From NCBI GenBank assembly GCA_946532115.1, contig CAMNBC010000005.1:1-45897 (forward strand): 45,897 bases of DNA, written 5' to 3'. The DNA comes from an uncultured Treponema sp. (GTDB lineage Bacteria; Spirochaetota; Spirochaetia; Treponematales; Treponemataceae). The number at the start of each line of letters is the position of its first letter. Position 1 is the first letter of the stretch. Shown piece by piece: positions 22,978-45,897 of this stretch. The notes under the pieces were generated by a model. That model ran no database searches, was not told where the DNA came from, and was given only the letters and a program-made list of their open reading frames with translations. A program made the position numbers and the translations under genes.

Positions 22978-24030
22978 TTGATTAAATTAGATTATACTTT
23001 AAACTCTCCGCAAGAAAGATTAGCCCTAGTAAAAAAGATACTTGAAGAAAACCCCAATCCCAATTCTGCGTATCTTGAAATACTAGCCGATTACCTAATT
23101 TTCTGTATGGAGAAAGAAGAGAAAAAGGAGAAAAAAATTCTTACTGAAAACCGCTTGGCAACTGTTAATAAAAGAGAAACCTCTTATGAGGGACTTGTCT
23201 CGCAATTTGAAAATGGCGAAGATGGAGTTTATAATATAACTAACGAAGATAAACATGTAATATTTCAACCAAAGATTTCAATAACAAAAAAAGATAGAGA
23301 AGAAATACCTGAACTACAACAAACTGACGAATCCATTGCGGCCTGGGACTACCGGGTGCGCCATAGCGAGGGTCGTGACGCTTTTATAGCAAAAAAAGCC
23401 TTAATAGAAAGTCGTAAGGACCAGTATGTAATAAAACAGCATAGAAATCCACCAGTGCAATCAATGCATCTTGTTCATTCAGAGCATCATATTGAATTAC
23501 CATGAGAAACAAAGATTGACGAAGAAGGAAACGTTGATACTACTGGATTATCTCTATGTAATCCAAAAGTATGTTCTGCAATTTTAGTAAACTATTCTAA
23601 ATTGCGCCAAAACAGCTGGGGTGATTTTATGGGAGATACCTGATTTCTTATGGAAGAATTCGATAAGGTGAGTATGATTGCGCTAAAAGATCAACCTCTC
23701 TTATACAGAATTGTTGAGTGTAAAGTGGATGGAATGCAAAATTCAGAAATTCGCGATGTAATTGAAGAAGAATTTGGTATTAAGCACAGTCTAGAATATA
23801 TTTCATCTTTATGGCGTAATAAGATTCCTAATTTAATTGCGTCCGCAGCAGAAGATGAATTCCTAGATTGGTATTATTTAAATGAAGAAAAGGGCAAATA
23901 TAAGAGATGCTCTCGCTGCGGAAAAATTAAACTGGCTCATAATAAATATTTCAGCAAAAATAAAACTAGTAAAGATGGATTTTATAGTATTTGTAAAGAA
24001 TGCCGTAATAAAAAGGACGAAAATCTGTAA
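22978..24030 (+). CDS. Late-operon zinc-ribbon protein (recoded)
   Basis: 350 aa with TGA=Trp at 23,503-23,505 and 23,641-23,643. TTG start after GGGAGGAAAAGAA. The C-terminal part has a helix-turn-helix-like segment (EIRDVIEEEFGIKHSLEYIS SLWRNKIP) and a zinc ribbon CSRCGK...CKECRNKK. It is the first gene of the late operon and lies two genes before TerL, so it may recognise packaging DNA, as small terminases do; that is inference. Stop TAA. Confidence 0.75.
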
Positions 24031-24072
24031 TTTGAGGCAATTGCGTGGTAAATATTTAAAAGGAGGTAGTTT

Positions 24073-25308
24073 ATGGATAATGTAAAAAATGATTTAATCT
24101 TTTGTGAAAAATGCCATAGAACATTAAAGAGAAGTGAGTTTTATCTATCTAATAATTTAGAAAAATATCCAAACGGTGGAACTATCCCCATTTGTAAAAA
24201 ATGTTTAACAATGCACGTAGATAATTGAAATCCAGATACATATTTATGGATTTTACAAGAGGTTGATGTACCTTACATTCCTGATGAGTGAAATGGACTT
24301 TTAGCTCGATATGGAACCGATCGGAAAAAGGTTACAGGTACTACTATTTTAGGAAGATACCTTTCTAAAATGAAACTTAAACAATATAGAGATTGGCGCT
24401 GAAAAGATACGGAATATCTCCAGGAGCTAGATCACAAGAAGGTGCGCGAGGCGCTTGAGGCGAACGGCGCAACAATGCAGGAAATTGATCAAGCGTTGCG
24501 CGAAAGGACTTTTGAGATTCCGGAAGGGGAATTGCGCGAGCCCGATCACACGGTCGGATTACCTGCCGGCGCAGATACCTATGAAACATTTACATTTGAA
24601 GAACCTGCTGAATCTGCTGATGAATTGGGTTTGACAGATGAAGATGTAACTTATCTTAAACTAAAATGAGGAGCGTCTTATAAACCAGCAGAGTGGGTAT
24701 GGTTAGAGCAGTATTATAATGATTTTATGGATTCTTATGATATTCAAAGTGCTGGTCATAAAGATACTCTTAAAAAACTTGCGAAAACCTCTCTTAAACT
24801 AGACCAATTAATTGATTTAGGAGATGTTGATGGCGCGCAAAAGACCCAAAAGATGTATGACAGTTTAATGCGCTCAGGTAAGTTCACTGCGGCGCAGAAC
24901 AAGGCAGAATCTGGTGAAGCTGTTGATTCAATTTCAGAAATTGTAATGATGTGTGAAAAAGATGGTTTTATCCCACGATATTATACCGATGGCCCGCAAG
25001 ATAAGGTTGATAGAGTTCTTCAGGATTTACAAGAGTATACTCATTCTTTAATCACAGAAGAAACTAATATTGGTAATCTTATTGAAAATGCGGTTAAGCA
25101 GATTGAAGAAGATAAAATTCGTGAAGCGCAAACCGAAGCAGATGCGGCAGGAGATGAAGACATTCTTGAAGAAGCGTTATTCTCTAATGACATTAGTTAT
25201 ATTTCTGACGGTGAATTTGAAGAATTTAATGATTTCGAAGATGATCTAGCAGATAAAGATAATGCGCTATTGGAAAATCTAACAGATTATACGAAAGCTG
25301 GTGAGTAA
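24073..25308 (+). CDS. Zinc-ribbon protein upstream of TerL (recoded)
   Basis: 411 aa with four TGA=Trp codons (24,226; 24,289; 24,400; 24,667). N-terminal ribbon CEKCHRTLKRSEFY...CKKCL, then VDNWNPDTYLWILQEVDVPY IPDEWN, where TGA falls on Trp positions I recall in related phage proteins. A later KWGASYKPAEWVWLEQYYND also has Trp at TGA. The C-terminus is acidic. AGGAGGTAGTTT precedes the ATG. Probably the small terminase or a packaging factor; in such phages this gene directly precedes terL. Confidence 0.8.
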
Positions 25309-25309
25309 T

Positions 25310-27094
25310 ATGGCTTTACAAGATTTATTAGAGATTTCAAAAGATAGGAAAAAGATTGGCTTATCAGAAGAGCGTTTGGAAAAAATTAAACCAGAATTGC
25401 GCCAATATATAGCATATTGGCGAGAGTACCCAGATATGTTTGTAGATTTTTTACAAACTGGAAAAGATGGAGAAATTCCAGAAAATGGACTCCGCTTTTT
25501 CTTTTATCAACGAGTTTTCTTACGAGTAGCAATGCGGTATAAATATGTTTATGCTGTATTCCCTCGTGCTTACTCTAAATCATTTTTATCAGTATTAATC
25601 TTAATGTGCCGATGCGTTTTATACCCAAGAGCAAAGTTATTTGTTACTTCTGGTGGTAAAGAGCAGTCTGCTGGTATTGTTAAAGAAAAAGTTAATGAAA
25701 TATGTACTTTGGTACCAGCTTTTGATAGAGAACTTGATCGCAGACCTGGTAAAACAAGAGAAGGTAAGGACTATGTTTGTTATATGTTTAAAAATGGTTC
25801 TTTCTTCGATAACCTTGCGGCCAGTGAGAAATCAAGAGGTAAGCGTCGTCATGGTGGATTAATGGAAGAGTGTGTTGGTATTGATGGTGAGATACTTTCA
25901 CAGGTAATATTACCAATTATGAACGTCTCTCGATTATGTATGGATGGTAGTATGCATAATGAAGAGACTTTAAATAAATCACAGTTATTTATTACAACAG
26001 CAGGATACAAGAATTCATTCCCTTATGATAAACTTATTCAGTTCTTAATTTGGATGATAACTGAACCAGATAAAGCGTTTATTATGGGAGGAACTTATAG
26101 GATTCCTGTTCTCGCAAAACTTCTTGATAAAAACTTTATTCAAGATCTTAAACGAGATGGTACGTTTAATGAAGCATCATTTCAGCGTGAATATGAGTCA
26201 AAATGGTCAGGAACAACTGCTGATGCGTTCTTTAATGGAGATGCGTTTGATAGAAATCGTTCACTCCAAAAGCCGGAATATGAACATTCTGGTCGGTCAA
26301 GTCTACAGAGTTATTATATTCTTTCTATGGACGTTGCGCGACAGAATACTGGTAAAAATGGATGTGATAGTGTAATTACTGTATTTAAGGTAACTCCACA
26401 GAACTATGGAGAAGTATCTATAAAATCATTGGTAAATCTTTATGTTTTAGAAAATATGCATTTTGAGGACCAGGCTATTTGGGCAAAACGTTTATTTTAT
26501 AAATATAAGGCAAGAAGAATTGTAATAGATGCTAACGGTCTTGGTACAGGCTTGGTTGACTTTATGGTAAAACCACAGACTGATCCATTAACTGGAGAGG
26601 AGTATCCAGATTTTGGTGTTATTGGCGGAACATCAGAGGGAATCGAGCAAGAATATAAAAAATTTAAAACGAACGTTACAGAACAAGATGCGATGTATTT
26701 GATGAAAGCAAATGCGCCGATTAACACCGAAGCGCATTCAAACGTACAAACACAACTTACTTCTGGAAAAGTAAAATTCTTAATTGACGAAAGGGTTGCA
26801 AAAAATAAACTCCTTGGAACTCAAAAGGGTAAACAAATGACACCTGATGAAAGGACAGATTATTTAAAACCCTATACCTTAACTTCTATATTAAAAGAGG
26901 AGATGTTAAATCTTCGCGAAGAAAATGAAGGATTTAACATTATTTTAAAGCAGGCTAATCGTAGTATTAAAAAGGATAAATTTTCTGCATTTGAATATGG
27001 ATTATGGTATATTAAACAAGTTGAAGATAGTAAGCGTAAAAAGAAGAAAAAATTTAATGCTGCGGAATGGCGATTCAGCTCGCATTTAGGATAG
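25310..27094 (+). CDS. terL: Terminase large subunit
   Basis: About 594 aa. The motor that cuts and pumps DNA into proheads. ATPase: variant Walker A PRAYSKS near residue 88, Walker B region GGLMEECVGID, coupling motif FITTAGYKNS. Nuclease: ILSMDVARQNTGKNGCDSVI with the first Asp, IVIDANGLGTGLVDF with the second, and FLIDERVA. ATG 25,310 is preferred over GTG 25,301, which overlaps the previous stop. It contains no TGA, only TGG. TAG stop. Confidence 0.9.
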   Translation: MALQDLLEISKDRKKIGLSEERLEKIKPELRQYIAYWREYPDMFVDFLQTGKDGEIPENGLRFFFYQRVFLRVAMRYKYVYAVFPRAYSKSFLSVLILMCRCVLYPRAKLFVTSGGKEQSAGIVKEKVNEICTLVPAFDRELDRRPGKTREGKDYVCYMFKNGSFFDNLAASEKSRGKRRHGGLMEECVGIDGEILSQVILPIMNVSRLCMDGSMHNEETLNKSQLFITTAGYKNSFPYDKLIQFLIWMITEPDKAFIMGGTYRIPVLAKLLDKNFIQDLKRDGTFNEASFQREYESKWSGTTADAFFNGDAFDRNRSLQKPEYEHSGRSSLQSYYILSMDVARQNTGKNGCDSVITVFKVTPQNYGEVSIKSLVNLYVLENMHFEDQAIWAKRLFYKYKARRIVIDANGLGTGLVDFMVKPQTDPLTGEEYPDFGVIGGTSEGIEQEYKKFKTNVTEQDAMYLMKANAPINTEAHSNVQTQLTSGKVKFLIDERVAKNKLLGTQKGKQMTPDERTDYLKPYTLTSILKEEMLNLREENEGFNIILKQANRSIKKDKFSAFEYGLWYIKQVEDSKRKKKKKFNAAEWRFSSHLG

Positions 27095-27104
27095 GAGGAA
27101 AATT

Positions 27105-27461
27105 ATGAGGGCAAGTAGAGGAGAAATAAAAATTGAAGATATTCTAACTCAAGCCGGACTTAATTTTAAAATGGAACTATCTTTTGAAGGATTGAATAGC
27201 CCGAACGGGAAACCATTAAGATTTGATTTTGTGGTGTTTGATGATGATGGCAATATAGATTTTATAATTGAATATCAGGGTCGTCAACATTATGAACCTA
27301 GTAGTAAATTTGGTGGAAAACGTGGATTTTATCAGCAGCAATTTAATGATGCTAAAAAACGTAGATTTTGCGCTCTTCATGATATTAAATTAATAGAAAT
27401 TCCATATACTGATGAGAATATTATTGATTATGATTATATTATGAAAAAAGCAGGCTACTAG
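27105..27461 (+). CDS. Vsr/EDxHD-like endonuclease
   Basis: 118 aa. MRASRGEIKIEDILTQAGLN, then RFDFVVFDDDGNIDFIIEYQ GRQHY, matching the PD-(D/E)XK-type core (D ... E-x-Q-G-x-QH) of small phage endonucleases such as Vsr-like and EDxHD homing types. A final ..IKLIEIPYTDE strand is also typical. AGGAGGAAAATT precedes the ATG. It sits between terL and portal; it may nick or resolve packaging DNA, or be a selfish nuclease. No TGA. TAG stop. Confidence 0.75.
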   Translation: MRASRGEIKIEDILTQAGLNFKMELSFEGLNSPNGKPLRFDFVVFDDDGNIDFIIEYQGRQHYEPSSKFGGKRGFYQQQFNDAKKRRFCALHDIKLIEIPYTDENIIDYDYIMKKAGY

Positions 27462-27472
27462 GAGGTGGGACT

Positions 27473-29083
27473 TTGGAAAATAAAGATAGACAAGACGCCA
27501 TTAGAGAAAAAGGTTTCGCCTTTAATGGTAATGGTACCACTGAGTATGGAAAAATTAAAGTAGGCGTAAAAACTTTAGAAGATGCTATTATTAATTTAGG
27601 TTCCTATAGAAAATTATGAGATAAACATGAACATGTCCGGTTTTATGATAAATTTGAAATTTTGCGCGCAATTGCGGAAAAAGATTATCATAAAATAAGA
27701 GTAATATCTGATTTCTTTTATCGGACAAATGGTATATACCAACGTATTGTAAACTATTATGCTACAATGTATCGTTGGGATTGGTATACAATACCTACAA
27801 TTTTTGATGATAAAATTTTAGAGAATGAAGAAAAAGGTAAAAAGGTAATTAATGAGTTTTTTAAAGCCTTAGATTATTTAGATAATACTCATATAAAAAA
27901 AGTTTGCGGAGATATTACTTTAAAAATCATTAAATATGGAGTTTGGTACGGCTATGTAATTGAAGGTGATAATGGGATTTTATTCCAAGAGTTGCCTGTA
28001 GATTATTGCCGGAGTAGATATATGGTAAATAATTTACCAGTTGTTGAATTTAATATGTCATATTTTGATCAACATTTCCATGATATTAATTATCGTATGA
28101 AAGTTCTCAAAATGTTTCCAAAAGATATTCAACGTGGTTATTTGCTTTATAAAGAACGTAAACTTCAGCCAGATTTTGAAGGTGATATGGCTTGCTGGTA
28201 TGCGCTAGATCCAGGAGCGGCTGTTAAATTTTCACTTGCGGGCGCAGGAGAATTACCGCTATTTATCAACGTTATTCCGCATTTATTGGACTTAGATGCG
28301 GCGCAAGATCTCGATCACCGCAAACAGATGCAAGATTTATTAAAAGTAATCGTGCAGAAATTGCCTATTGATAAAAATGGCGATTTAATTTTTGATGTTG
28401 ATGAAGCAAGAGATATTCATAATAATGCGGTTGCAATGTTACAACACGCTATTGGAACTGATGTTATTACAACATTTGCTGATGTTGATTCTCTTGATTT
28501 ATCTGATACTTCTAATGTAGACACTGATGATCTTGAAAGAGAAGAACGTTCAGTGTACAATGCAGCAGGTGTGCCTAAAAACTTATTCAATTCTGATGGT
28601 AATATTGCACTAACAAGTTCTATTTTACAAGATGAAGGTGTAATGCGAGACTTAAAGTTGCAATATGAAATTTTATTTGATACAATAATTCAGAGAAGAA
28701 TTAAGAATAAGAAGAAGTATACATTCAGATTCTATATTCTTGATACTACACAATATAACTATAAAGAACTTTCTAAGATGTATAAAGAGCAAATGCAGAT
28801 TGGTTTTGGTAAGATGTTTGCGCAAATTGCGCTCGGACATTCGCAGAATTCAATTATGAGTACTGCCTACTTCGAGAATGATGTTTTAGGATTAAGTGAA
28901 GTTATGATTCCTCCTATGATGTCATCTACTATTGGTAGTGAAGATATTCAAAATTTGGGCAAAAAGAATAAAACTCAAGCCACTGAAACGCAAACTACAT
29001 CAGAAGGTCAAACTGGCAGACCTCAAAAAGAAGAAACTGAACTAAGCGATAAGACTATCGCAAATAGGGAAAGTCAGAAATAA
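27473..29083 (+). CDS. Portal protein (recoded)
   Basis: 536 aa, a usual portal size. It forms the dodecameric DNA channel at one capsid vertex. TTG start after AGGAGGTGGGAC; one TGA=Trp at 27,617-27,619 restores the N-terminus (SYRKLWDKHEHVRFYDKFEI). Portal-like features are the early YQRIVNYYATMYRWDWYTIP segment, VYNAAGVPKNLFNSDGNIAL and a long amphipathic region near the C-terminus, with a polar Gln/Thr tail. Position after terL supports it. Stop TAA. Confidence 0.85.
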
Positions 29084-29094
29084 GGAGGATTACA

Positions 29095-30372
29095 ATGGAA
29101 CATACAAGTATAGCAGTAAATTCTCCAATAGAAATAATTGATGTGACTCCTTTGAATCCTCTTATTTCAAAGTGCCAGATTAAGGTGTGCTATGTGGGTG
29201 ATGAGCCAAATCGTAACGGAAGCGTAATTACTAAGGCAGTAGCGATGGATATGGCGAAATCACTCCCTGGCTGCCCGATTGTTGGCTTTTACAATGAAAC
29301 CAAGGGAGATTTTGAAGCACATAATCAAATCATTGATGTTTCTAATGGTGAATGGCGTTTTAAAGATACAACTCAGGCTTATGGATTTGTTGATTTAAAC
29401 GCAAAAGTATGGTTTCAGAAATTCATGGACGACGGCGTTGAACATGAATATTTAATGACAGAGGGTTACCTCTGGACTGAACAGTGGCCAGAAGCCAAGA
29501 GGGTTATTGAAAAGGGAAATAATCAATCTATGGAACTTTATGAACCAACTTTAGATGGATTTTGGTCAGAAAGTGATAATGGAGAACCAAGTTTCTTTAT
29601 TATAAATGAAGCATTAATCTCTAAGTTGTGCATTTTGGGCGAGGACGTTGAACCTTGCTTTGAAGGCGCGCAAATCACAAGAGTGCAATTCTCATTTGAT
29701 GAAGGGTTCCAGACAAAATTATTTAATATGATGGAACAGGTCAAGGAGATGACTAAAGAAGGAGGTACAGATTCTGTGGAAGATGTAAAAGCACCAGAGA
29801 TGGACGAACAGGTTGTTGAAGAAGAAATTGTTGAAGAGCCTGAAGTCGTTGAAGAAGAGGCTCCTGAAGTTGAAGAAGCTCCAGCAGTTGCTGAAGAAGA
29901 AGTAGCTCCAGAAGAGGCTCAGCCTGAACAGGTAGACGAGCAGCCTGAACAGGAAGTTGAGGACAAAAAAATTGAATATAATCTTGAAAAAGTTCAAGAA
30001 TATATAGAATTACAGTCTAAGTATGAAGATTTAGAAACAAAGTATAACAATATGAAAGCTGAATATGAACAGCTCGTAGAATTCAAGAAAGTTGCTGACC
30101 GCAAGGAAAAGCAAGAGATGATTGATCGCTTCTACATGCTTACAGATGAGGAAAAGAAAGATGTTATTGATAACATTGATTCTTACTCAGTCGATGATAT
30201 TGAAGCTAAGCTTTCTGTAATTTGTGTTCGTAACAAGGTAAGCTTTGACCTTGATGATGATAAGGATGAAAAACCAACAAATACTTTCAGCCTACAGGAT
30301 GATGGAATTGTTGATGACATGACACCTTCATGGATTAAAGCAGCTCTTGCTACGAAGAGAGAAATGGAATAA
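29095..30372 (+). CDS. Prohead protease fused to scaffold domain
   Basis: 425 aa. Residues 1 to about 215 look like a serine prohead protease: GSVITKAVAMDMAKSLPGCP, His76 in DFEAHNQ and Ser145 in GNNQSMELYE, as in HK97-type S78 enzymes. Residues about 220-300 are an acidic Glu/Val/Pro-rich linker, and 295-345 a coiled coil (YIELQSKYEDLETKYNNMKA), as expected for a scaffold. It cleaves itself and capsid during head assembly. AAGGAGGATTACA precedes the ATG. No TGA. Confidence 0.8.
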   Translation: MEHTSIAVNSPIEIIDVTPLNPLISKCQIKVCYVGDEPNRNGSVITKAVAMDMAKSLPGCPIVGFYNETKGDFEAHNQIIDVSNGEWRFKDTTQAYGFVDLNAKVWFQKFMDDGVEHEYLMTEGYLWTEQWPEAKRVIEKGNNQSMELYEPTLDGFWSESDNGEPSFFIINEALISKLCILGEDVEPCFEGAQITRVQFSFDEGFQTKLFNMMEQVKEMTKEGGTDSVEDVKAPEMDEQVVEEEIVEEPEVVEEEAPEVEEAPAVAEEEVAPEEAQPEQVDEQPEQEVEDKKIEYNLEKVQEYIELQSKYEDLETKYNNMKAEYEQLVEFKKVADRKEKQEMIDRFYMLTDEEKKDVIDNIDSYSVDDIEAKLSVICVRNKVSFDLDDDKDEKPTNTFSLQDDGIVDDMTPSWIKAALATKREME

Positions 30373-30390
30373 TATAGGAGGAAGACAAGA

Positions 30391-31116
30391 ATGGCTAAAA
30401 CAAGATTAAGTGAAAAAGCCACATATGTCGCTCGCGGTTATGGCCAGGTAGAACCAAACCATCTATCAGCTCAGAAGACTGCTCAAATCTATGCTCAGTT
30501 ACCTGCGGCAGCAGATATTGACATTCTTGAGAATGGACAGTTTGCTACATATAACTATGCTGCTGCTGATGGCGGTGCAGTTGACTTTGAAGGCGCTGGC
30601 GAGTGGATGATGGTCTTTAATGAGATCAAGCTATATCGTGACTTTGAACAGGATTGCGATTTCGCAATGAAGAAAGAAGACTATGTTGCTCGTGTATACA
30701 GCCCAATTGATGGAACACAGGCTTTAACTGAATGGCAGGCTCGTTTCTACGGAGCTAAGGATTCCGAAGGTAAGGACAATGCTGAGCGCGTTACAAAGCC
30801 TGCTTCTCCATACGAAGTTGATTCTACAGACGACCCATTCAAGGTTGTTGAAAATTACAAGAAACCAAAGTTTATGCCTGAAGGCACAAGAATGGTTCCA
30901 CGTCTATTTAAGATTAATATTGGCGACATTTGGACAACAAATACAATTAAGGCTGAACCAGGTAGCCTTGAAGTTGGTATGACGCTAACTCCAGATACTG
31001 ATGGTTATTTAAAGGTTGGCGAAGGCGCAGATGCTCTTCATCCAACAATGCAGATTGTTAAGGTTTATACAATGCCTGACATGCAGCCAGGTGTTAAGGT
31101 TATGCGCATTAAGTAA
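30391..31116 (+). CDS. Virion protein, possible capsid decoration
   Basis: 241 aa, MAKTRLSEKATYVARGYGQV. A structural-type protein between scaffold and capsid with phage-typical segment ENGQFATYNY and GEWMMVFNEIKLYRD. Strand-rich C-terminus. TAGGAGGAAGACAAGA precedes the ATG. Codons differ from neighbours: GCT/GTT-rich and no TGA, as in the capsid gene, so it is probably made in large amount. Exact role unknown. Confidence 0.7.
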   Translation: MAKTRLSEKATYVARGYGQVEPNHLSAQKTAQIYAQLPAAADIDILENGQFATYNYAAADGGAVDFEGAGEWMMVFNEIKLYRDFEQDCDFAMKKEDYVARVYSPIDGTQALTEWQARFYGAKDSEGKDNAERVTKPASPYEVDSTDDPFKVVENYKKPKFMPEGTRMVPRLFKINIGDIWTTNTIKAEPGSLEVGMTLTPDTDGYLKVGEGADALHPTMQIVKVYTMPDMQPGVKVMRIK

Positions 31117-31134
31117 TAGAAAGGGGTAAGGGAA

Positions 31135-32238
31135 ATGTTAGATAAGAAAAATTTCATTACATTAGCAAAAACTGTTGCTAAGGCTGATCCTAAAGCTCCT
31201 AAAGCGTATAGCTATAATGGACAGGATTTCAGTTATTCTGAGTTAAATGAAACTCTACGTAGAGAGTTCCAGGAAATCGCTGGTACATACGCTCTTTATC
31301 GTGAAAATAAGAACCTTGTATTCTCTATCATCGAAGAAACATTAACAGATGTTCTTCCTCAGAGAGTGGTTCAGAACTACGGTCAGTTCGCAGAAGTTAA
31401 GACTTTTGCGCAGGGCGATCGTCCAATGTTCCGTAGAAAGATTGATGGCACAAATCGTGCTAAGCAGTTCATTACAAGAGTAGGTCTTGCTGGTAACTAT
31501 GAAGTCTTCAAGCTTGCTAAGAGTTCTGAAAGCTTCGAAGTTCCTACAAGTGCTATCGGCGGAGCTGCACAGATCGGATTCGAAGAATTCCTTGATGGTC
31601 GTGCTGACTTTGCTGAACTTGTTAATATCGTCATGGAAGGTATGGATGACCTCATCTATGAAGAAATTGGCAAGGCTCTTGAGGGCGCTATTAATCAGCT
31701 CCCAGCTATGAACCGTGTTGTTACCAATGGCTTTGATGCAGCTTCTTTCGATGAACTCGTTCGTATGGCTGAAAGCTATGGCAATGTAACAATTTACTGC
31801 ACAAATGAATTTGCAGTTAAGATGATTCCTCAGGAAGCTTGGAGATACACAGAAGCAATGAAGGACGAACTTTACAGAACAGGTCGTCTAAGTGGCTATC
31901 GTGATAAGAATGTTGTTATTCTTCCAAATGCTTACAAGGATGTTATTGAAGGTAAGGAAAAGGTTATTGATCCTTCCTTCTGCTGGATTATTCCATCTGG
32001 TGCTGATATGAAGCCAGTTAAGGTTGCGTTTGAAGGCGATACATTAGTTGATGAGCGCGCAAATCGTGACTGGAGCCGTGAGATCCAGGTTTATAAGAAG
32101 GTCGGCGTTATCTGCATGATGAACAATGCTATCTGTGTTTATAAGGATACATCTCTATCCAAGGAAGGTGCATTCAATTTAGCTGATACAGTTCATAACG
32201 TTGTTGTTGTCGATGATGGCGAGACACAGAGTATCTAA
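31135..32238 (+). CDS. Major capsid protein
   Basis: 367 aa, HK97-fold type. The N-terminal helical region is followed by an E-loop-like part (MFRRKIDGTNRAKQFITRVG), a long spine helix (AELVNIVMEGMDDLIYEEIG), and a P-domain end (DSFCWIIPSG-type, with RDWSREIQVYKKVGVICMMN). GAAAGGGGTAAGGG precedes the ATG. Trp is only TGG. TAA stop, then a terminator. Position and composition strongly support capsid. Confidence 0.9.
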   Translation: MLDKKNFITLAKTVAKADPKAPKAYSYNGQDFSYSELNETLRREFQEIAGTYALYRENKNLVFSIIEETLTDVLPQRVVQNYGQFAEVKTFAQGDRPMFRRKIDGTNRAKQFITRVGLAGNYEVFKLAKSSESFEVPTSAIGGAAQIGFEEFLDGRADFAELVNIVMEGMDDLIYEEIGKALEGAINQLPAMNRVVTNGFDAASFDELVRMAESYGNVTIYCTNEFAVKMIPQEAWRYTEAMKDELYRTGRLSGYRDKNVVILPNAYKDVIEGKEKVIDPSFCWIIPSGADMKPVKVAFEGDTLVDERANRDWSREIQVYKKVGVICMMNNAICVYKDTSLSKEGAFNLADTVHNVVVVDDGETQSI

Positions 32239-32913: not shown

Positions 32914-33504
32914 ATGGGAACGCAGTTCACAGATATATATAATCGCTTTCTTGGTAAAATCACAGATGATATGTACATGGAATTAACTCCAGAAGATACA
33001 ATAAGGGACCTACGGTCCCTTTTAATTGATGCAATTCCTGGATTTGAGTTTCCTCGTAAAAGATTAGATGACTACTCTATTGAAACTTTGGTAATCAGAG
33101 AAGACCTGGTTCAGGAGGGGGATTTTGTTATCGGAGTTGTGTGGAACACTCCCGATGAAGAAGAAGACGAGGAAATTCCAGATGTATATGTCGAACGCTC
33201 GCATTTTGATGCAGATTTAACGAGTGAAGAGATTAATATTCTTGCATTGTTAATGATGTGTGCTTGGCTACAACGACAAGTTACATCTATTGAAAATACT
33301 CGCATGAAGTATAGCGGCTCAGATTTTAAAATGACTTCACAAGCGAATCATCTTGCCAAATTATTAAATTTATTAACAGAATGTCAAAGACAATCTTTCC
33401 ACATGCAGCGTTTATATAAACGTAGACGCACAAATGATGAAGGGTATATTGAATCTAACTGGGATGTGTTTAGAAATGGCATCTACGGTGACTACAAAAT
33501 ATAG
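32914..33504 (+). CDS. Head-tail connector-like protein
   Basis: 196 aa, MGTQFTDIYNRFLGKITDDM. Helical; the YxRFLxKITDDMYxELTxEDT start and gene position after the capsid cluster suggest an adaptor of the head-tail joint. A central acidic turn (NTPDEEEDEEIPDVY). GAAAGGAGAGTATATT precedes the ATG. It overlaps the next gene by 29 bases. TAG stop. No TGA. Confidence 0.65.
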   Translation: MGTQFTDIYNRFLGKITDDMYMELTPEDTIRDLRSLLIDAIPGFEFPRKRLDDYSIETLVIREDLVQEGDFVIGVVWNTPDEEEDEEIPDVYVERSHFDADLTSEEINILALLMMCAWLQRQVTSIENTRMKYSGSDFKMTSQANHLAKLLNLLTECQRQSFHMQRLYKRRRTNDEGYIESNWDVFRNGIYGDYKI

Positions 33505-33787
33505 TTTTGAAATACCTGTAGAGAGTCTTAAGTCCGATATAAACAGACTTACAAACCAGTTATGAAAATTAATACCTATGCGAGAAAATGAAGAAGATTG
33601 GTTAGAGCAGTTAAATAGTGTATTAGTAGAGATTTCTGGATTGGGGGAAATTTTTAATTCTAACGAGAAATTTTTAATTTTATTAAGTAAGCTTGAAGGA
33701 TTAAGAATTACAGAAATTAATTTTGCTACATATAGAAAAACTGTATTTGAATCAATTTCTTTATTAAGGGAGATTTTAAATGACTAA
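33476..33787 (+). CDS. Small neck-region protein (recoded)
   Basis: 103 aa; TGA=Trp at 33,563-33,565 (NRLTNQLWKLIPMRENEEDW). Without recoding the start would be a less likely ATG at 33,578. Helical. It overlaps the upstream gene at its start and the next gene at its end. TAA stop. Function unknown. Confidence 0.6.
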
Positions 33788-34781: not shown

Positions 34782-35378
34782 ATGATAATTAAAAACTATA
34801 CAATACCGCATTCATCATTCATGGCGGTTGAAAAAGATTTAAATATCATAACAGAATGAATGATGAAAAATAAAAATCTGTGTAAAATGTTATATTATAC
34901 AGATAGAGATGCATTGGATAGGCCAAATCTTACTGATGAACAACGATTAGGATTGTTTGGAAAACAGATAAAGATTGTTCCTAAAATTTATGTGGATGGT
35001 AGTGTATTGGCGTATGTTATTATTAGTTTTGATAATTTTACTCCAAGTTCTAGTCCACAATTTAGAGATAATATAATTACTTTTGATATTATATGTCATT
35101 TTGATCAATGGCATTTAAAAGATTTTCAACTACGTCCATATCGTATTGCCGCAGAGATAGATTCTATGTTTAATGAACAGCATCTTACTGGAATTGGTGA
35201 ATTACATTTTTTAGGAGCTAGTCAGATTATTCTTAATGATGAATTTGCTGGATTAACGTTAATGTATGAAGCTATTCACGGCGGTGAAGATAAGAAATCT
35301 ACGCCTAATCCAGATGATGAAGAACAATTTATAGCTGATTTTAATGAACTATATAATCAAAGTTATAGAAAACCATAA
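34782..35378 (+). CDS. Tail-terminator or neck-like protein (recoded)
   Basis: 198 aa; TGA=Trp at 34,857-34,859 (LNIITEWMMKNKNLCKMLYY). Strand-rich middle (VDGSVLAYVIISFDNFTPSS, ITFDIICHFDQWHLKDFQLR PYRIAAEIDSMF), as in small neck/terminator proteins. AAGGAGAAAATGGAGTATT precedes the ATG. It ends in TAATG overlap with the next gene. Confidence 0.65.
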
Positions 35379-36100
35379 TGAAAGATATAGACCTCGCATT
35401 ATTTACTGGAGTTGATATTCCAATTCCAGAATGTCAAATTGTTGTTCATCAACCAACAATCAAAGAAATATCTATGATAGGAGAAAAGCAGTTCTTAACA
35501 GGAGTGCAAATTTTATGTATAGATAAAGATACGTTTAAAGAGGGCGGAAAGGATTTATCAAATACTTCCAATTTTCAAGTATTTATGACAGTAATAAGCG
35601 CTGAGGAGATGAAAGAATCCAAAAAGGCAGTTATTGAAGCAATGTCTTTAATAGTTCCAAATAGTAAGATTACTTTCACTCCAAGGTCATTATTGTTAAA
35701 TTATAATGATACAAACATCATTATAGATGAAGGAAATTTTGAATATTTTCAAGAGATTTTACGGCAAGTTTTTTGTCTAAAGAGTAAAGAAGAAGATTTT
35801 AATCCAGTAAATGCACAAGCTGCTAAGATAGCTGAAAAAATGAAAAAAGCAAAAGCTAAAGTTGCAAAAATAAAAGGGGATAGTGTAGGTAGTATATATG
35901 CTCGTTATATATCTACATTAGCTGTTGGATTACATTTAGATATTCTTGATATAATTAATTATACGATATATCAAGTTTTAGATCTTCTTGAGAGATATGG
36001 TCTTTGGACAAGTTGAGATATAGATATGAGATCTAGGCTTGCTGGGGCAGACGTTAAAGGCAAGCCTGAAGATTGAATGAAAAATATCCACAAAGATTAA
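35378..36100 (+). CDS. Tail chaperone-like protein (recoded)
   Basis: 240 aa with two TGA=Trp codons (36,014 and 36,074), giving the C-terminus RYGLWTSWDIDMRSRLAGAD then EDWMKNIHKD. This ending is a recognisable type (D.D...R.AGA....W.K.IH) of phage tail-assembly proteins; without recoding 28 residues are lost. Helical middle with a lysine-rich coiled part (KIAEKMKKAKAKVAKIKGDS). ATG overlaps the previous TAA. TAA stop. Confidence 0.7.
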
Positions 36101-37264: not shown

Positions 37265-37441
37265 ATGTTTTCTCGCTCTAGTAAAACAAGAAAAGTAGTT
37301 AAACCAGCTACTGTTAAAGTTATTAAACCTGAGCAGGAAGAAAAGCCAGCTTTAGATTTAACTAAAGCTAAAATTACTATTATCAAACCTGATGCAGGTT
37401 TAAAAGTTATGGTTGAAGAAAATGAAGGAGAGGGCGAATAG
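37265..37441 (+). CDS. 58-aa basic protein after tail tube
   Basis: MFSRSSKTRKVVKPATVKVI KPEQEEKPALDLTKAKITII, then an acidic end. Two V/I-I-K-P repeats (KVIKPEQ, TIIKPDA). TAG stop in the loop of a terminator. Possibly a minor tail protein or chaperone; unknown. Confidence 0.6.
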   Translation: MFSRSSKTRKVVKPATVKVIKPEQEEKPALDLTKAKITIIKPDAGLKVMVEENEGEGE

Positions 37442-37457
37442 CCCTCTCCTTTTTTTA
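37427..37457 (+). terminator. Terminator
   Basis: GGAGAGGGC-gaata-GCCCTCTCC then TTTTTTT; the TAG stop spans the loop. Confidence 0.9.
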
Positions 37458-37481
37458 GTTTTAGAAGGTAGGTGTAAAGAA

Positions 37482-38687
37482 ATGAGCGATCTATCTTTCA
37501 ATATACAAAAAGAATGAAAAAAAGATAATTTTGATTTACAGCAAGTTGTAGAAGAATTAGAAAAAATGGTAAAAAAAATTCCGAAAGAAGATGCAGAATT
37601 ATTTCGAGCAGAAATTAATGATAGTGAGTTTATAAAAAATTTGAAATTATTTGCTAGAGGGTGTGAAGCTTTTCAGTTATTTTTAAATAAGGCACAAAAA
37701 ACACAAACAGGATGAAATTATAAAACATATGGAAAAAATTCTCCATATAAAAATAGAGAAATTATTCGACGAGGTACTGCTTTAATATTTCAATTAAGAA
37801 CATTTTTAACAGGGCATAAAATAACTTTTTTGATTGGTGGTACGGCAGGTAGTAATACATTAAAAGAAAAAGAATATAGTCAAGATTTATTATTCGGAAA
37901 TGACTTATCTAATTTATACATAAATTTGAATAAAGGCGAGGTAGAATTATCTTCAGCTTTAGAAAAATTGAATAGTTTAGAAGATAGTAATGGAACTTTG
38001 AGTCAACAATGAGCTAATATTATAAACTATGCTTTAGTAAAAAATTATAAGACAGAAGGAGAACCATACGGTAGTTATGAAAGTTCTTCTTCAGGTTCTG
38101 ATGAAAATAAGCAACATATAGTTTATAAAAAGAGTGAAGCAGATATAAGTGTTTATTATAAATGGGTTAAAGATAATAAAAAAAATAGACTCGATTATTA
38201 TTATAATTTTAAAGAGCATTTTTCACAAATAACTTCTAAAAAAGATTTTCAAGATATGCGAAGCTATGATAGAGGATGATTATATCAATGAGGTAAAATA
38301 AAAGAGCATGAAGATAATTTAATTATTGAAACTGGACTTAAACCATTGCATGAATTTATGAAAACTTCTTTTAGAGAGAATGTTCCTGGTATTCGAGGTG
38401 GAGACTATATAAAAGGAACTTTAAACGAACAATATAAATATACAAGTAATTCAAGAATTATTACAATTACAAATATTAAAAATTTGCTAAACGGTGGAGG
38501 ACGAGGTAGTGCATCTTTTATTGGAATAATACCCTCTATTAAAAATTTTTTAAATGCTAGTGGTAAAGAAGAACAAATTGAAAATTTAAGTTCTTTATTG
38601 GTTGATTTTACTAGTTATAATAAAGAAGAGCTAACAAATTTTGTTAATGAAAAAATTGATGGTTTATTAGAAATATCAGAAAAATAA
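37482..38687 (+). CDS. Unknown recoded protein, TGA-rich
   Basis: 401 aa with five TGA=Trp codons (37,515; 37,713; 38,010; 38,277; 38,289). MSDLSFNIQKEWKKDNFDLQ, then charged helices and a TGWNYKTYGKNSPYKNREII stretch. The C-terminal third has SYDRGWLYQWGKIKEHEDNL and VPGIRGGDYIKGTLNEQYKY. A+T-richer than neighbours and no family recognised, so it could be a cargo gene inserted between tail tube and tail chaperone. GAAGGTAGGTGTAAAGA precedes the ATG. TAA stop. Confidence 0.65.
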
Positions 38688-38716
38688 ATTATTTTATTTT
38701 AATGAAAAATTTTTGT

Positions 38717-38722: not shown

Positions 38723-38748
38723 ATAAGAGAAAAAGGAGGTCATTTTAT

Positions 38749-39273: not shown

Positions 39274-39321
39274 TTAATCTATAAACTTCTTAAAATATAA
39301 AGAAGAATAGACATATTAAGG

Positions 39322-39360
39322 CCCTACGAGGATTAATTTCTTCGTAGGGTTTATTTTTTT
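39322..39360 (+). terminator. Terminator before tape measure gene
   Basis: CCCTACGA (39,322-39,329) / TCGTAGGG (39,342-39,349) followed by TTTATTTTTTT. It may adjust the ratio of tape measure to chaperone. Confidence 0.8.
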
Positions 39361-39386
39361 ATATTAGGAGAGAAAGGAGCGGAAAT

Positions 39387-42300
39387 ATGCCAAAACAGAT
39401 AAATGTTAAGCTGGGATTTGAGGCTGATACCAGTCAAGCTAAAAAGCAGATACAAGATTTGCAAAATAGTTTAAATAAATTATTGCAAAATTCTGCAAGT
39501 AAAAGCCCGTTCCAAGAGATGGATAAAGATATATTAAAAGCAGAGCAATCTGTTGCAAAATTACAAACTGCTATTAATAATTCTTTAAACATGGATACTG
39601 GACGATTAGATTTATCAAAATTTTCTAATCAATTAGGACAGGCAGATTTATCAATTGATTTGTTGGCTAAAGATTTATCTGCTCTTGGAGCAGATGGACA
39701 AAAAGCTTTTTTAAATTTGGCAAATAGTGTAATTACTGCCCAAAAGCCTATGCATGAAACTAATAAGCTGTTAGATGGAATGTGAACAGCTTTAAAAAAT
39801 ACCGCAAGATGGCAATTATCTAGTAGTATTCTACATGGGTTTATGAGTTCATTACAGGGCGCATATGGTTATGCTCAAGATTTAAATGCTTCATTAAATA
39901 GTATTAGAATAGTTTCTGGTCAATCTGTTGAACAGATGGCAAGATTCGCGGATCAGGCTAATCGGTCGGCGCAAGCGCTTAGTACAAGTACTTTGGCATA
40001 TACTGATGCCGCTTTAATTTTCTATCAACAAGGCTTAACTGGCGATGCTGTTACTGAGCGTGTTGATACTGTATTAAAATTATCTAATGTAACTGGAGAT
40101 AGCGCTGAACAAGTTTCTAGCTACATGACTGCCATTTGAAATAACTTTTATGATGGTAGTGAATCTTTAGAATCATTTGCAGATAAAATTACAGCATTAG
40201 GCGCAGCAACTGCTTCAAGTTCTGCCGAAATTGCGGCAGGTTTACAGCAATTTGCAGCTATTGGTAATACTGTTGGTTTAAGTTATGATTATGCTGCGAC
40301 AGCTTTGGCTACGATTGTCGCGCAAACACGTCAATCAGAATCAACTGTTGGTAACGGTTTAAGAACGGTCTTCGCTAGATTATCTAGCTTAAAACAGGGT
40401 GGTACTGATGAAGATGGTACTGATTTAACTAAATATACTAAAGCTCTTGCTGAGTATGGCGTACAAGTTAAAGACCAAAATGGAAATCTTAAAGAAATGG
40501 ACCAAATTCTTGAAGAAATTGGTGCAAAATGGCAAACATTAAGTCAAAATCAAAAAGTTGCTTTGGCACAAACTGTTGGCGGTGTTAGACAATATGCCAC
40601 AATTATGGCATTGTTTGATAATTGAGATGATTTCCAAAGAAATTTGGCTGTTACTCAAGGAGCAGAAGGCACATTACAAGAGCAAGCTGATATTTATGCT
40701 GAAAGTTGAGAGGCTGCGCGTAAAAGGGTACAAGCCGCTTGGCAAGCTATTTATCAAGATTTAATTGATGAAAAATTCTTTATTGGTATAGCTAATGGAA
40801 TTGAAACTATTTTAAAAGGCGTTGATGGATTAATAGATTCTATTGGTGGTTTGAAAGGCGTTTTGACAAATGCTGGCGCAATTATTACTACAGTATTTGG
40901 AGCTCAAATGGTTTCTGGGATTCAAAAAGCTCAACAATCTTTAAAAATATTTACTGGAGTAGCTGCTGCTGAAAGTGATGCAGTAGCAGTTCAAACAAAA
41001 CAAGCTATTGAAAATATGGCTATTGAAGCTCCAGATACAACACAAGCAGTAGAAGTAAATGCTTTAAAAGATAGGTTAAAATTAACCTGAGAACTTAGAG
41101 ATGTTTATGATGAACTTTCTTCTGGTCAGCAAGAATATACTCAAACTTTATTAAAACAAGTAGAGTTATACCAGCAAGCTACAATTGAGGCAAAAAAAAT
41201 GCAAGAAGCTGCAAGTGAAGAATATTTGTCTCAAGCTAGAAAAACAAGAAATTCTTTTATCGGTGCCGAAAATTTTGATGCTTTTGATCAATATACAAGA
41301 GGTCAAGGCAGAAATGAAAAAGGTCAATTTGTAGGTACTACTCAATTCGAATATGATGTTAATCAAGTTGGTCAGTTAACAAAAGGATCAAAAGAATACG
41401 AAGAAGCTTATGATAGATTATTAAAGAAAATTTATGACGTTACAAACGCGCAAGACAAACAAAAAGAATCTATTCAAGCTATGGTTGCAGCAAGATTAGA
41501 AGAGATTGAAGCTTCAAAAAAATTAGAACAAGCATCTGATGCTGAACAACAGAAATTGTCTCAAGTTGGTACAGAAATTCAAAAATTAAAAGAGCAGAAG
41601 AAAAATGGTATTAATGTTACCGAAGAACAAATAGCAGCTTTAGAGAAAGAGATGTCTCAGCTTGATGAAAATAGTGAAGCATATAAAAAGTATGCTGCAG
41701 AAATCGCGAAATTAAAATCTTCTCAAAATAATGGATTACTTGGAGCAAATGCAGATAAAATTGTAAAAGGCGCTCAAGCTGTTTCTCAATTAACTGCAGG
41801 AATAACTTCATTAACTTCTATTTGGGGAATATGGTTTGATAAAGCTAATGAATCTATTCCAGCTGGTGAAAAGTTAGTAAAAACTCTTGTTGCAATTTCA
41901 GCTGGCCTTCCAATGGTTATAATGGGGATTAAAACTTTAGGAATATCATTAACAAAAGCCGGAGTAGAAGGAGCTGTTGGCCTTGGAGTGTTAAAAGGTG
42001 GCATAGATGGTGTAACAGTTTCTATTTTAGGAATGGAAGTCGCATTAGGATCACTATTATTAGCAATTGTTGGTATTGCAGCAGTTGTTGGAATAATTTG
42101 AGGATTATCTAAAGCTTGAAATAAAGCAGCTGATGATGCGAAAAAAGCAAAAGAGGCAGCGGCAGAAGCGAAAGAAGAGTATGAAAAACTTAATTCTGAG
42201 TTTAAAGAATTAGAATCTTCTTTAAATAGCTTAAAAGATTCTCAAGATGTATTAGATCATTTAAGAGAAGGCACTGATGAATGGAAAAAATCTGTACAAG

Positions 42301-45300
42301 AGTTAAATGATCAAGTAATGGATTTAATCACTAAATATCCAGAGCTTGCTCAGTATGTACAAAATATCAATGGTAGCTTGCAAATATCTGAAAAAGGCAT
42401 GCAAGAATATCTTAATCAGCAATACACTGAAAGACAAGAAGCTTATGCTGAAATGATATCTGCTCAAGGAAGTAGTGTTGAAACAAATTTAAAAGATAGC
42501 GCTACTAATTTATCAAGAAAATTTACATTTGATACTGGCGATGGAAATTCATTTTCTATGGCAACAGCAGAAGACTTTATTAAAGTTGCTGAAGCATATA
42601 AAAAAGGCAATGATATTTTAGGTGGAACTTCTGAACAAATAAATCAAGCATTAAAGGATATAGGTATTAATTCAGATTTTGCACGACAAGCAATAATGGA
42701 TAATACTGAAGAAGTCCTTAAAATGTGTAGAGAGTATGCTAATGGAGTAAATTCAGTTAATGCTTTATCTGATGCTTTTTATCAATCCAACATTGAAAAT
42801 GAAGTTGGAGATAAAATTCGTTCTAATTTAGGAGATAATCAAGCTTATTTATTATCTCCTATAGAAGGAGCTCTTGCTGATCGAGCGCAAGAAATTGCTG
42901 CTGATTATGAAAAAGAAGGGTTTAAAGCTGGTGAGGCATTTAATAAAGGTGTTGAGGATGCTTTAAAAGAATATAATAAAGATCCAGATGCTTGAAGTAG
43001 TAATGCTGAACGTCAAGCTAAAGGCGAAATTGCGGCTGGGCTTGGTGCAAATGCTGGTGTTCAAATTGATGAAGGTGAATTTGATAATTTCTGAAATAGT
43101 TTGTCTTCTGAAGAAAAGCAAATACTCATTGAAGTTGGTATTGACGAAGAAAAATCTTATGCAGATATTCGTGCGACGCTTGATAGATTAGAGGAAGAGC
43201 GAGATAATTCTTATCAGATAGATTTTAAAATTGATGAAGATGTTGATGAAGAAGAATTAAATAATCTTACTAATTATATTCATGATCACGCCGATGAATT
43301 AGATGGTTTTTCTGAACATTTAACAAAATGCAAAGAAGAAGCCGCGCATTTAGCTCATGCTATTTTGAGATTTGATGATGCTATTCAAAATGTTACTGAT
43401 AATTATGAAGAATGAATGGATATGCTCAACAGTGGAGCTATTCAAGATAATGCAAAAGCAGCAGAAGAGTTATCGGAAGCTTATGGTGATTTATTAGACA
43501 TTGATGGTTCTGTTTTAAGTGGAGATTTTACTGAAAATACTGAAAATCTTGAATTAATGAAACAAGCTATTGAAGGTAATGAAAAAGCTTATGAAAGATT
43601 GCAAGAATTAGCTAATCAAGATATAATTGCGCAATGTGATTTAGATACAACAAAATTTGATGATGCTAGCCAACGACTTGATGCTGAATTAGCTAGATTA
43701 AATTTTCAAACATTAGAAATAGGCGCTGATTTAAATACAGATGCTGCTTTACAAGCAATGACAGATCTGGTTAATGCTGCTAATATGACAGCAACTCAAG
43801 CACAAGCCTATTTAGCAAATATGGGTATTGATGCGACTGTTATTGAAGAAAAAAAGACGGATACTGATACCCAAGAAACTCCAGATTTTGAAGCACATTT
43901 AATACCTAAATCAGAGACCGCAGATATTCCTTATATGCAAGGAATGACTGGCGAATATGGTATTGCACATCCATCATATACTGTTTATGGAGTAGAATAT
44001 ACGCCAAATCCTAGTGAAATAACTACTACTAAAGAAACTACTGCAACAGCTTTACGAGTAACATCTGCTCACAAGGCTGCTGGAGGTGCTATTAAGCATC
44101 AACACTCTAATAGTGGCGGCGGAGCTAATGGTAAAGGTAATACTCGTGGTTCTGGTGGTAAAGGTGGAGGAGGTTCCTCTAAACCTAAAAAGAAAACAGT
44201 TAAAGAACACAAAAAGCCAGAGAAAAAAGAAGATCGTTATCACGATATCAAAGAACGTATTGAAGATTTAAATACAGAACTTAAACGTCTTGCAAAAACT
44301 GAAGATAGAGTATATGGTAAGTCAAAACTCAAGTATATGGATCAAGAAATTGAAAAACTTGAGAAACAAATTGAACTTACTGATGAATATATTAAAGAAA
44401 TTAAAAAATATGCGGCAATTGACCAAGCCAATCTTCGTGGTATTAATATGGGTGCTACGTTTGATGAAAATGGACGCCTTAATAACTATGAACAAGTATT
44501 GGCAAATATTGTAAACACATATAATGGCGCGGTGGCTGCATATAACGGTGCCGTAGATAATTTTAATGCTAGTGCGCAAGAAGATGCGGATAGTGCAGCA
44601 TTAGAAGCAGCAGAAAAAACATTAAGTGCGGCTAAAGAAACTTATGATGAACGTTTAAAGATTCTTAACCAATATGAAGATACATATAATCTTCTTCAAC
44701 AGAAGATGGATGAACGTATTGACCAAGTATGGGAATTATTTGATAAGCGTTTAGAAAAAATTACTTGACGCATTGAATTTGAATTAGATTGAAATGAAAA
44801 AGAATTGGATCATTTTGATTGATTATTAAAGTATATCGGTAAAGATGCTGACCACGCATCAGATGCTATCGCTAATTTAAGTAAGCAAATGGGCATTTAT
44901 GAAGAAAGTATAGATTGAGCGAAAAAAGGTATCGCTGATATATTTGATTTACATGGTGTTGATTTTGATTTTGATAATGCCGATCCAAATTATTTATATG
45001 ATCGTTTATTAGATTTCATGCATCTCCAAGGCTTAGAGTCAGAAATGACTGAAAAAGAAGCCGAAGCATTGATTAAATATATGGACGTTTTAAGAGATTC
45101 TTATGACGGTATGTATGACGCTTGAGAAGAAGCTCATGAACATATGATGAATGCTTGGGATGAATGGAATGAGCGCATTGGTGATGCAATTTATGATATC
45201 CAGCAATATGGTGAAGAATTAGAAAATATCCAAAAGATTGTTGATTTAACTGGTAGGAAACTCTTAAAAATGAGTACTCAAGATTTGAATAAAATGAATC

Positions 45301-45897
45301 AGACAATCGTTGTAAATGCTCAGGAAAACTTACGGGCAACTAAAGCACATTTAGATGCAATGGAACAAGCCGTGGCAGATTCTGCAGCAGCGTATCAAAG
45401 ATCATTAGAACAAAATCTTGCCGAAGACGTTCAAAATAAATTATATGAAGAATGGCGTCAAATGAAAGAGGATTATGATGATGCTCTTAATGATTATTAT
45501 AACGCTTGAGAAGATACCTTACAAAAAGGCGAGGATGCTTTCAAAAGATATATGGAGGCGTTAACTCAAGATTATAATAATTCATTCGGTCAAATGGATT
45601 TAGATTATATGATAGACCAATTTGACCGTCAGAAAGAAGTTAGAGATTTATATCTTGATGATTACCAGAAGTATCATGAATTAAATAAAACAGCTCAAGA
45701 ACTTAATAAGAGTTTAGCGGCTACTAATAATGATTTAATTCGTGGTAAATTACTTGATTTACAAGACGAGATAAATGCATCAATGCAAACTGGAGTTCAA
45801 ATATCTGCGGCGCAGGCTGAAATATATGCGCGCAGAGTTGCTTTATTACAAGCTGAAGCTGAGCTTTTGGATGCGCAAAATGCTAAGAACGCAGTTA
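39387..45897 (+). CDS. Tape measure protein (recoded, runs off the window)
   Basis: At least 2170 aa, open to the right edge. It sets tail length and may help DNA entry. Sixteen in-frame TGAs (39,783; 40,137; 40,623; 40,707; 41,088; 42,099; 42,117; 42,993; 43,092; 43,413; 44,766; 44,790; 44,820; 44,916; 45,123; 45,507) join a dozen ORF pieces in one frame. N-terminal TMP block: PKQINVKLGFEADTSQAKKQ, AYTDAALIFYQQGL, SSYMTAIWNNFYDGSESLES. Hydrophobic helices near residues 820-910 and long coiled coils beyond 1600. GAGAAAGGAGCGGAAAT precedes the ATG. Confidence 0.9.

What the first reader, a model, noticed from the sequence alone, without database searches (positions are those of the whole stretch)
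22978..45897. TGA is read as tryptophan throughout the late operon
Nine late genes need in-frame TGA to be complete: I count 36 such codons, 16 in the tape measure alone, and no late gene ends in TGA. TGA falls where Trp belongs, for example VDNW-NPDTYLWILQ, MTAIW-NNFYD, YAESW-EAARKRVQAAW and ICW-RVEA. Glycine (the CPR-bacteria meaning) would not fit these spots. Known: TGA and TAG reassignment occurs in gut phages whose hosts use the standard code.
Basis: partly seen in the sequence, partly recalled or inferred. Interest (0 to 1): 0.9.

Follow-up and report, generated by a model that had tools for sequence, protein, structure and literature searches.

The report
Phage late genes read TGA as tryptophan
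A large gut-type phage reads the stop codon TGA as tryptophan in its virion genes but still uses TGA as a stop in its early genes, and its close relatives carry the tRNA that makes this possible, usually hidden because a self-splicing-type intron cuts its anticodon.

Summary
Confirmed. In 22978-45897, frames of the structural genes are closed only by TAA/TAG and carry about 33 clear in-gene TGA codons (37 in the longest frames; 4 are upstream of, or ambiguous at, the real starts). At 12 columns with homologues, relatives have TGG 456, TGA 105, other residues 61 and no glycine. The phage belongs to a family related to phAss-1 and Geobacillus phage E3 in which different members read TGA (Trp), TAG (Gln) or neither. 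TGA reading is confined to the late operon plus one gene at 3519-4241. In the early half TGA still ends genes. Replication-strand genes hardly use it. The four (near-)complete TGA-reading relatives all encode a tRNA(UCA) of Trp type at the late-operon end, behind a small Hsp20-like gene, with its own sigma-70-type promoter. In 16 of 19 readable loci that tRNA is interrupted between U34 and C35 by a covarying group I intron, which hides it from ordinary tRNA finders. No phage TrpRS or release factor was found in the TGA readers. The recoding is of a known kind; the intron-split suppressor tRNA and the TGA=stop / TGA=Trp partition are the new parts. The window ends before the tRNA, so that step is inferred from relatives.

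The parts
22917..22946 (+). sigma-70-type promoter of the recoded late operon, TTGACA-18-TATAAT
   Evidence: 12 of 12 consensus match; the equivalent promoter is present in G002 and G009
22978..24030 (+). first late gene (PHROG label 'sigma factor', not confirmed by Pfam or PDB; C-terminal CxxC..CxxC motif); TGA at 23503 (mixed column) and 23641 (Trp column)
   Evidence: PHROG 5767 E 3.5e-49; no Pfam or PDB support; columns
24073..25308 (+). late gene with 4 TGA (24226, 24289, 24400, 24667), all Trp columns (24226 also Phe in some relatives)
   Evidence: PHROG 3314
25301..27094 (+). terminase large subunit, no TGA in this phage
   Evidence: (phage TerL relatives)
27473..29083 (+). portal protein frame; its only TGA (27617) lies upstream of the conserved part
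   Evidence: PHROG 2739 E 1.7e-77
29095..32238 (+). three head-region genes (29095-30372, 30391-31116, 31135-32238) without TGA; the second and third also avoid the recoded codon in TAG-reading relatives
33434..34763 (+). two genes (33434-33787, 33780-34763) with TGA at 33563, 34080, 34158, 34377, 34680, all Trp columns
34782..36100 (+). virion structural protein (34782-35378; TGA 34857 ambiguous) and 35378-36100 with TGA 36014 and 36074 (Trp columns)
   Evidence: PHROG 6123, 4051
37413..38687 (+). late gene with 5 in-frame TGA, no homologues found among the fetched relatives
39348..45897 (+). tail tape measure protein, runs off the contig end, 16 in-frame TGA, 10 TGG
   Evidence: PHROG 4211 E 7e-47
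3519..4241 (+). recoded gene outside the late operon: TGA at 3666 and 4005, read-through conserved in G002; TGG at the second in G003
14966..15379 (-). early gene in which TGA is the STOP codon (G009, G002, L020 also TGA at the same place; G003 TAA); sigma-70-type promoter at 15437
15718..16401 (-). early gene ending in TGA (G009 homologue ends in TAA); promoter at 16456
10905..11588 (+). early gene ending in TGA (G003 homologue also TGA)
19142..19489 (-). early gene ending in TGA (G002 homologue also TGA)
1..22000 (.). promoter-dense region of small genes, likely early/host-takeover: 17 near-perfect sigma-70-type promoters on both strands
   Evidence: 17 observed vs 0.06 expected from first-order shuffles; 0 in 23001-45897

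Best explanation
This is the left end and virion operon of a large tailed phage that translates UGA as tryptophan late in infection, in a host that uses the standard code. A phage tRNA-Trp with anticodon UCA, charged by the host TrpRS, reads UGA in virion mRNAs. In relatives the tRNA gene sits at the end of the late operon in its own unit (promoter, small ORF, Hsp20-like gene, tRNA). In most of them the tRNA is cut between U34 and C35 by a group I intron that must be removed first. Early genes are translated before enough suppressor exists, so they still use UGA as stop. Shown by sequence: UGA sits at Trp positions; the early/late partition; presence, synteny, promoter and covariation of the split tRNA in relatives. 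Inferred: that this phage has the tRNA (its contig ends first), that it is spliced, charged with Trp and active, and the order in time.
For: Trp columns: 456 TGG of 517 sense codons, no Gly. Conversely, relatives' TGA codons fall on window Trp 245 times, next Tyr 17. Full relatives: late strand 697 TGA / 522 TGG, replication strand 55 / 534 (Fisher p about 5e-94, sequences not independent). Early families end TAA 22, TGA 16, TAG 13; late genes TAA 50, TAG 18, TGA 0 (p about 3e-7). tRNA(UCA) in all four near-complete TGA-reading relatives, always 26-38 bp behind the Hsp20-like gene. Group I intron: Rfam RF00028 E 4e-7 in G002; 58 pairs, 97.6% paired, 25 pairs with compensatory change against 17.6 in shuffles and at most 7 when slid. 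Removing the intron of G009 gives the same anticodon loop CTTCAAC as the intron-less tRNA of G005. Promoter with at least 4 of 6 matches in the -35 box and a TATAAT or TATACT -10 box in 17 of 18 loci. TGA seen independently in 99%-identical contigs from other samples.
Against: The window holds no tRNA and no other contig of its MAG has the Hsp20-like gene, so the decoder of this very phage is not seen. Two near-complete TGA readers (G003, G005) have an un-split tRNA, so the intron is not essential. A few apparent replication-strand frames contain TGA, some probably not real genes. No RNA or protein data. Trp charging is inferred from the Trp columns and the tRNA's resemblance (A1-U72, G73), not tested.
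Confidence: 0.88

Rival explanations
1. The host itself reads UGA as Trp (code 4), and the phage merely follows it.
For: Only prfA, not prfB, was found in the MAG that holds the contig.
Against: The MAG ends 26 of 199 long frames with TGA, with a median read-through of 12 codons to the next stop, and is only 73% complete. The phage's own early genes end in TGA and replication genes avoid it as Trp; under a code-4 host Trp TGA would be spread evenly. The relatives carry their own tRNA(UCA).
Confidence: 0.04
2. UGA is read as Trp by a phage or host tRNA-Trp(CCA) able to misread (Hirsh-type), without a UCA tRNA.
For: TGA readers G002, G003, G005 also encode tRNA-Trp(CCA) of unusual acceptor sequence.
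Against: All four near-complete TGA readers have a UCA tRNA in a conserved place.
Confidence: 0.04
3. UGA means glycine or selenocysteine here.
For: Both meanings of UGA exist elsewhere (general knowledge).
Against: No Gly and no Cys among 517 sense codons at the 12 columns; Sec machinery was not searched for; ARAGORN's 'SeC' label is only its name for a UCA anticodon.
Confidence: 0.01
4. The TGAs are assembly errors or marks of decayed genes.
For: Genes look broken under the standard code.
Against: Same pattern in independent contigs, Trp columns, no TAA/TAG or frameshifts, strong period-3 signal.
Confidence: 0.01

Closest known systems
crAss-like phages with TGA=Trp or TAG=Gln in late genes (Yutin et al. 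2021, PMC7886860)
   Same: Late-gene-only recoding, closely related members with different codes, phage suppressor tRNAs, some recoded phages without a detectable suppressor
   Different: Unrelated phage group by terminase; here a group I intron lies inside the suppressor tRNA itself, whereas that paper's introns are in protein genes; here the detectability problem is partly explained by the intron
phAss-1 group (PMC10607447)
   Same: Related terminase (42% identity), large genome with many tRNAs, no phage aaRS, recoded virion genes
   Different: That paper reports TAG=Gln with CTA tRNAs only; the present clade uses TGA=Trp with a UCA tRNA in its own transcription unit
Lak megaphages with tRNA introns (Devoto et al. 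2019, PMC6784885)
   Same: Recoded gut phage with introns in tRNA genes
   Different: TAG=Gln; introns described as enigmatic, in Thr and Tyr tRNAs among others; no group I assignment or suppressor tRNA intron found in the text passages I read
Theta ribozymes beside suppressor tRNAs (2024, PMC10879173)
   Same: A ribozyme in the maturation path of a phage suppressor tRNA
   Different: HDV-like ribozyme at the tRNA 3' end, code 15 only (no code 4 case with tRNA-Sup); here a group I intron in the anticodon loop of a UGA suppressor
[quoted passage not shown]
   Same: Small group I intron in a tRNA anticodon loop (position from general knowledge)
   Different: Host gene, sense tRNA; a 2014 review states that all phage group I introns then known lay in protein genes (PMC3984707)

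Membership tests
Phages with TGA=Trp (code 4) recoding of late genes | In-frame TGA at conserved Trp positions of structural genes | tested here: met
   456 TGG of 517 sense codons at 12 columns
Phages with TGA=Trp (code 4) recoding of late genes | TGA not used as stop by the recoded genes | tested here: met
   Window late genes end TAA/TAG; relatives 0 of 68
Phages with TGA=Trp (code 4) recoding of late genes | Recoding absent from early genes | tested here: met
Phages with TGA=Trp (code 4) recoding of late genes | Phage-encoded tRNA(UCA) | tested here: inconclusive
   Absent from this partial contig; present in all 4 near-complete close relatives
Phages with TGA=Trp (code 4) recoding of late genes | Standard-code host | tested here: inconclusive
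   MAG that contains the contig is standard, but binning of a phage contig does not prove the host
Group I intron (in relatives' tRNA) | Conserved core with P3, P4, P6, P7 pairing and a terminal G | tested here: met
   RF00028 E 4e-7, below Rfam's gathering score; covariation incl. P3 and P7; invariant G before CAA
Group I intron (in relatives' tRNA) | Self-splicing activity | not testable with these tools
   needs in vitro splicing
tRNA-Trp | A1-U72 and G73 | tested here: met
   Most UCA tRNAs: A1-U72 in 12 of 13 distinct rows, discriminator G before C(CA)
tRNA-Trp | Charged with tryptophan | not testable with these tools
   inferred from Trp columns
crAss-like phages (Crassvirales) | Closest terminase relatives are Crassvirales | tested here: not met
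   The listed nearest records are phages of Geobacillus, Enterococcus, Alicyclobacillus, Brevibacillus, Bacillus, Lactococcus and phAss-1, no crAss-like phage

The most novel reading that the evidence does not exclude
The group I intron in the UGA-suppressor tRNA is a timing switch: the unit is transcribed early from a host-type promoter, but UGA stays a stop until splicing delivers mature tRNA-Trp(UCA), so an RNA splicing step sets when the phage changes its genetic code.
Probability: 0.2. Interest if true: 0.88.

Novelty: new variant of a known kind. Interest (0 to 1): 0.72.

Why it matters
It has been puzzling that some recoded phages lack a visible suppressor tRNA (noted in PMC7886860). 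In two of four near-complete relatives here the suppressor exists but is invisible to a default tRNA search because a group I intron cuts its anticodon; re-scanning other 'suppressor-less' recoded phages with intron-aware models is a direct test. The same genome gives TGA two meanings, stop in early-type genes and Trp in late genes, which makes the idea of a timed code switch testable. The family holds TGA, TAG and standard members, including a near-identical set (L071, L072, L073) caught at the start of TGA use, so code change can be followed codon by codon.

Tried and rejected
Host code 4: rejected by MAG stop usage and by TGA stops and avoidance in phage early genes. Glycine: rejected by columns. 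Phage TrpRS and RF2 in TGA readers: none by Pfam profile; the only RF found is an RF2-type (SPF motif) in the 402-kb TAG-reading relative G012. Default ARAGORN gave no UCA tRNA in G002 and G009; lowering its threshold gave only noise; allowing introns solved it. Search for other pieces of this phage in its MAG with the Hsp20-like gene: none. Rfam on the window: nothing credible. First gene as a sigma factor: PHROG says so, Pfam and PDB do not support it, so I do not build on it. tRNA with UCA by DNA pattern elsewhere in viral contigs: 12 un-split cases, several with higher code-4 coding density, so a plain UCA tRNA is not new. Borges et al. 2022, the main paper on this phenomenon, is not in the library; anything said about it rests on memory.

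Full report
What is in the window. The window is the whole of contig C5 (45,897 bp) of a 2.45-Mb, 73%-complete MAG. Its right half is the late operon of a large tailed phage: terminase (25301-27094), portal (27473-29083), virion proteins and an unfinished tape measure (39348 to the end). Nearest named terminases belong to phages of Geobacillus, Enterococcus and other Firmicutes and to phAss-1, all below 60% identity. IMG/VR holds over 100 relatives, three of them 99% identical over the whole terminase.

The observation. Reading TGA through turns the broken late frames into ordinary genes that end only in TAA or TAG. I count 37 TGA in the longest frames, 16 in the tape measure. Three (27617, 34857, 36078) lie at or before the real starts and one (23503) falls in a variable column, so about 33 are clear.

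What TGA means. Twelve in-gene TGA columns have homologues: 456 TGG, 105 TGA, 61 other residues (mostly Phe and Tyr), no Gly. In the faster-evolving tape measure and the 3519 gene the columns are TGA 28 and TGG 9, other residues at most 4 each. Read the other way, TGA codons of relatives fall on window Trp 245 times, next Tyr 17.

A family with three codes. Of 90 relatives scored, 24 read TGA, 52 read TAG (opposite Gln 807 times, next Glu 161) and 14 use neither. None clearly uses both. A quick terminase tree needs nine code changes (two is the least possible; the careful tree did not finish). L071, L072 and L073 have near-identical terminases (L071 and L073 align at up to 96% DNA identity); L073 has TGA at five Trp codons, L071 at one, L072 at none. 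Four of the five lie in the first late gene, which may mean that recoding starts there; one case, not a rule. Two head genes (30391-31116, 31135-32238) avoid the recoded codon in both TGA and TAG readers, as expected if suppression costs yield; that reading is inference.

Where TGA is and is not Trp. Four near-complete relatives were read whole. Late strand: 697 TGA and 522 TGG; replication strand: 55 and 534. The few replication-strand TGAs sit in a handful of frames, some probably not genes. In the promoter-dense left half, conserved small genes end TAA 22, TGA 16, TAG 13 times across window and relatives, whereas late genes end TAA 50, TAG 18, TGA 0 (Fisher p about 3e-7). For the family of 6673-7056 and that of 9552-9899 the stop at the same column is TAA in some copies and TGA in others. 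So one genome gives TGA two meanings. A recoded gene also lies at 3519-4241, outside the late operon. That the left-half genes are expressed early is inferred from their promoters and small size, not measured.

The decoder. No tRNA lies in the window. In G005 and G003 a tRNA with anticodon UCA was found directly at the end of the late operon; in G002 and G009 it appears only if introns are allowed. In all four it follows an Hsp20-like gene (Pfam HSP20, E 0.002, below cut-off) by 26-38 bp. A scan for that gene gave 20 loci. Nineteen have enough sequence behind the gene: 16 show the intron, 3 do not (ARAGORN labels several of the split ones Cys(gca) because it places the intron boundary elsewhere). 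Alignment fixes the splice sites: exon ...CTT, intron ending in G, exon CAA..., that is between U34 and C35. Joining the exons of G009 gives the same anticodon loop as the un-split tRNA of G005.

The intron is a group I intron. Rfam RF00028 matches the G002 copy with E 4e-7, below the family's gathering score. A structure of 58 pairs including tRNA stems and P2 to P9 is kept in 97.6% of cells; 25 pairs show changes on both sides (shuffled 17.6, none of 500 as high; slid versions at most 7). P3 and P7, pairs that define the fold, both show compensatory changes. The core sequence occurs in 14 of 2.9 million viral contigs; 12 are contigs already found by the Hsp20-like gene, and the two others, L232 and L236, also have it inside a UCA tRNA.

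Its transcription. The unit (small ORF of 58-73 aa, Hsp20-like gene, tRNA) has its own TTGAC[AT]-17/18-TATAAT promoter in nearly all loci; in most, a hairpin with a T run precedes it. The late operon itself also starts with a perfect promoter of the same type (22917-22946), so a promoter class alone does not separate early from late. TAG suppressors (CUA) of relatives sit instead among the tRNA arrays.

Model. Host polymerase transcribes the small unit; the intron leaves; tRNA-Trp(UCA) is charged by the host enzyme (no phage TrpRS) and competes with RF2. Early proteins made before that stop at UGA; virion genes are read through afterwards. The order in time, splicing and charging are inferred. 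The split state of this phage's own tRNA is unknown: its clade contains split (L013, L046) and un-split (L016, L021) members.

Known or new. Late-gene TGA=Trp or TAG=Gln recoding is known from crAss-like phages, which also switch code over short distances and sometimes lack a visible suppressor (PMC7886860). TAG recoding is known in the related phAss-1 (PMC10607447). Introns in phage tRNAs were reported in Lak phages (PMC6784885) and counted in recoded jumbo phages (PMC13037316), without group I assignment or link to a suppressor in the passages I read. A ribozyme next to suppressor tRNAs is known for code 15 only (PMC10879173). A 2014 review stated that all phage group I introns then known lay in protein genes (PMC3984707). 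In the held literature I found no group I intron inside a UGA-suppressor tRNA. The library lacks Borges et al. 2022, so this is not exhaustive.

Noticed in passing
window 1-22000: About 20 kb with few long genes but 17 near-perfect sigma-70-type promoters on both strands (0.06 expected); relatives G002, G009 and G003 have the same. Looks like a host-takeover region of very small genes or small RNAs.
   Followed up: partly
L218 (G003 58412-58506) and L137:8971-9066 (G019): UCA tRNAs with an extra hairpin in the variable region that resembles a second, CCA, anticodon arm; in G019 it sits next to tRNA-Trp(CCA). Could be a fusion or duplication of Trp tRNAs.
   Followed up: no
G002 138397, G005 132745, G009 147276, G019 987: Phage-encoded tmRNA genes in or next to near-complete tRNA sets (20-28 tRNAs).
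   Followed up: no
L253 / L143 (G012, 402 kb): A 402-kb TAG-reading relative encodes an RF2-type release factor (SPF motif) and duplicated tRNA arrays, each with two CUA tRNAs.
   Followed up: partly
L071, L072, L073: Phages with near-identical terminases that differ in having TGA or TGG at Trp codons; G019 (L071) has only sparse TGA along its late operon, like a code change in progress.
   Followed up: partly
L228, L229: The group I intron carries an extra insert of about 115 bases in a peripheral loop.
   Followed up: no
window 21871-22704 (-): FolD-type methylenetetrahydrofolate dehydrogenase/cyclohydrolase gene in the phage, next to the late promoter.
   Followed up: no
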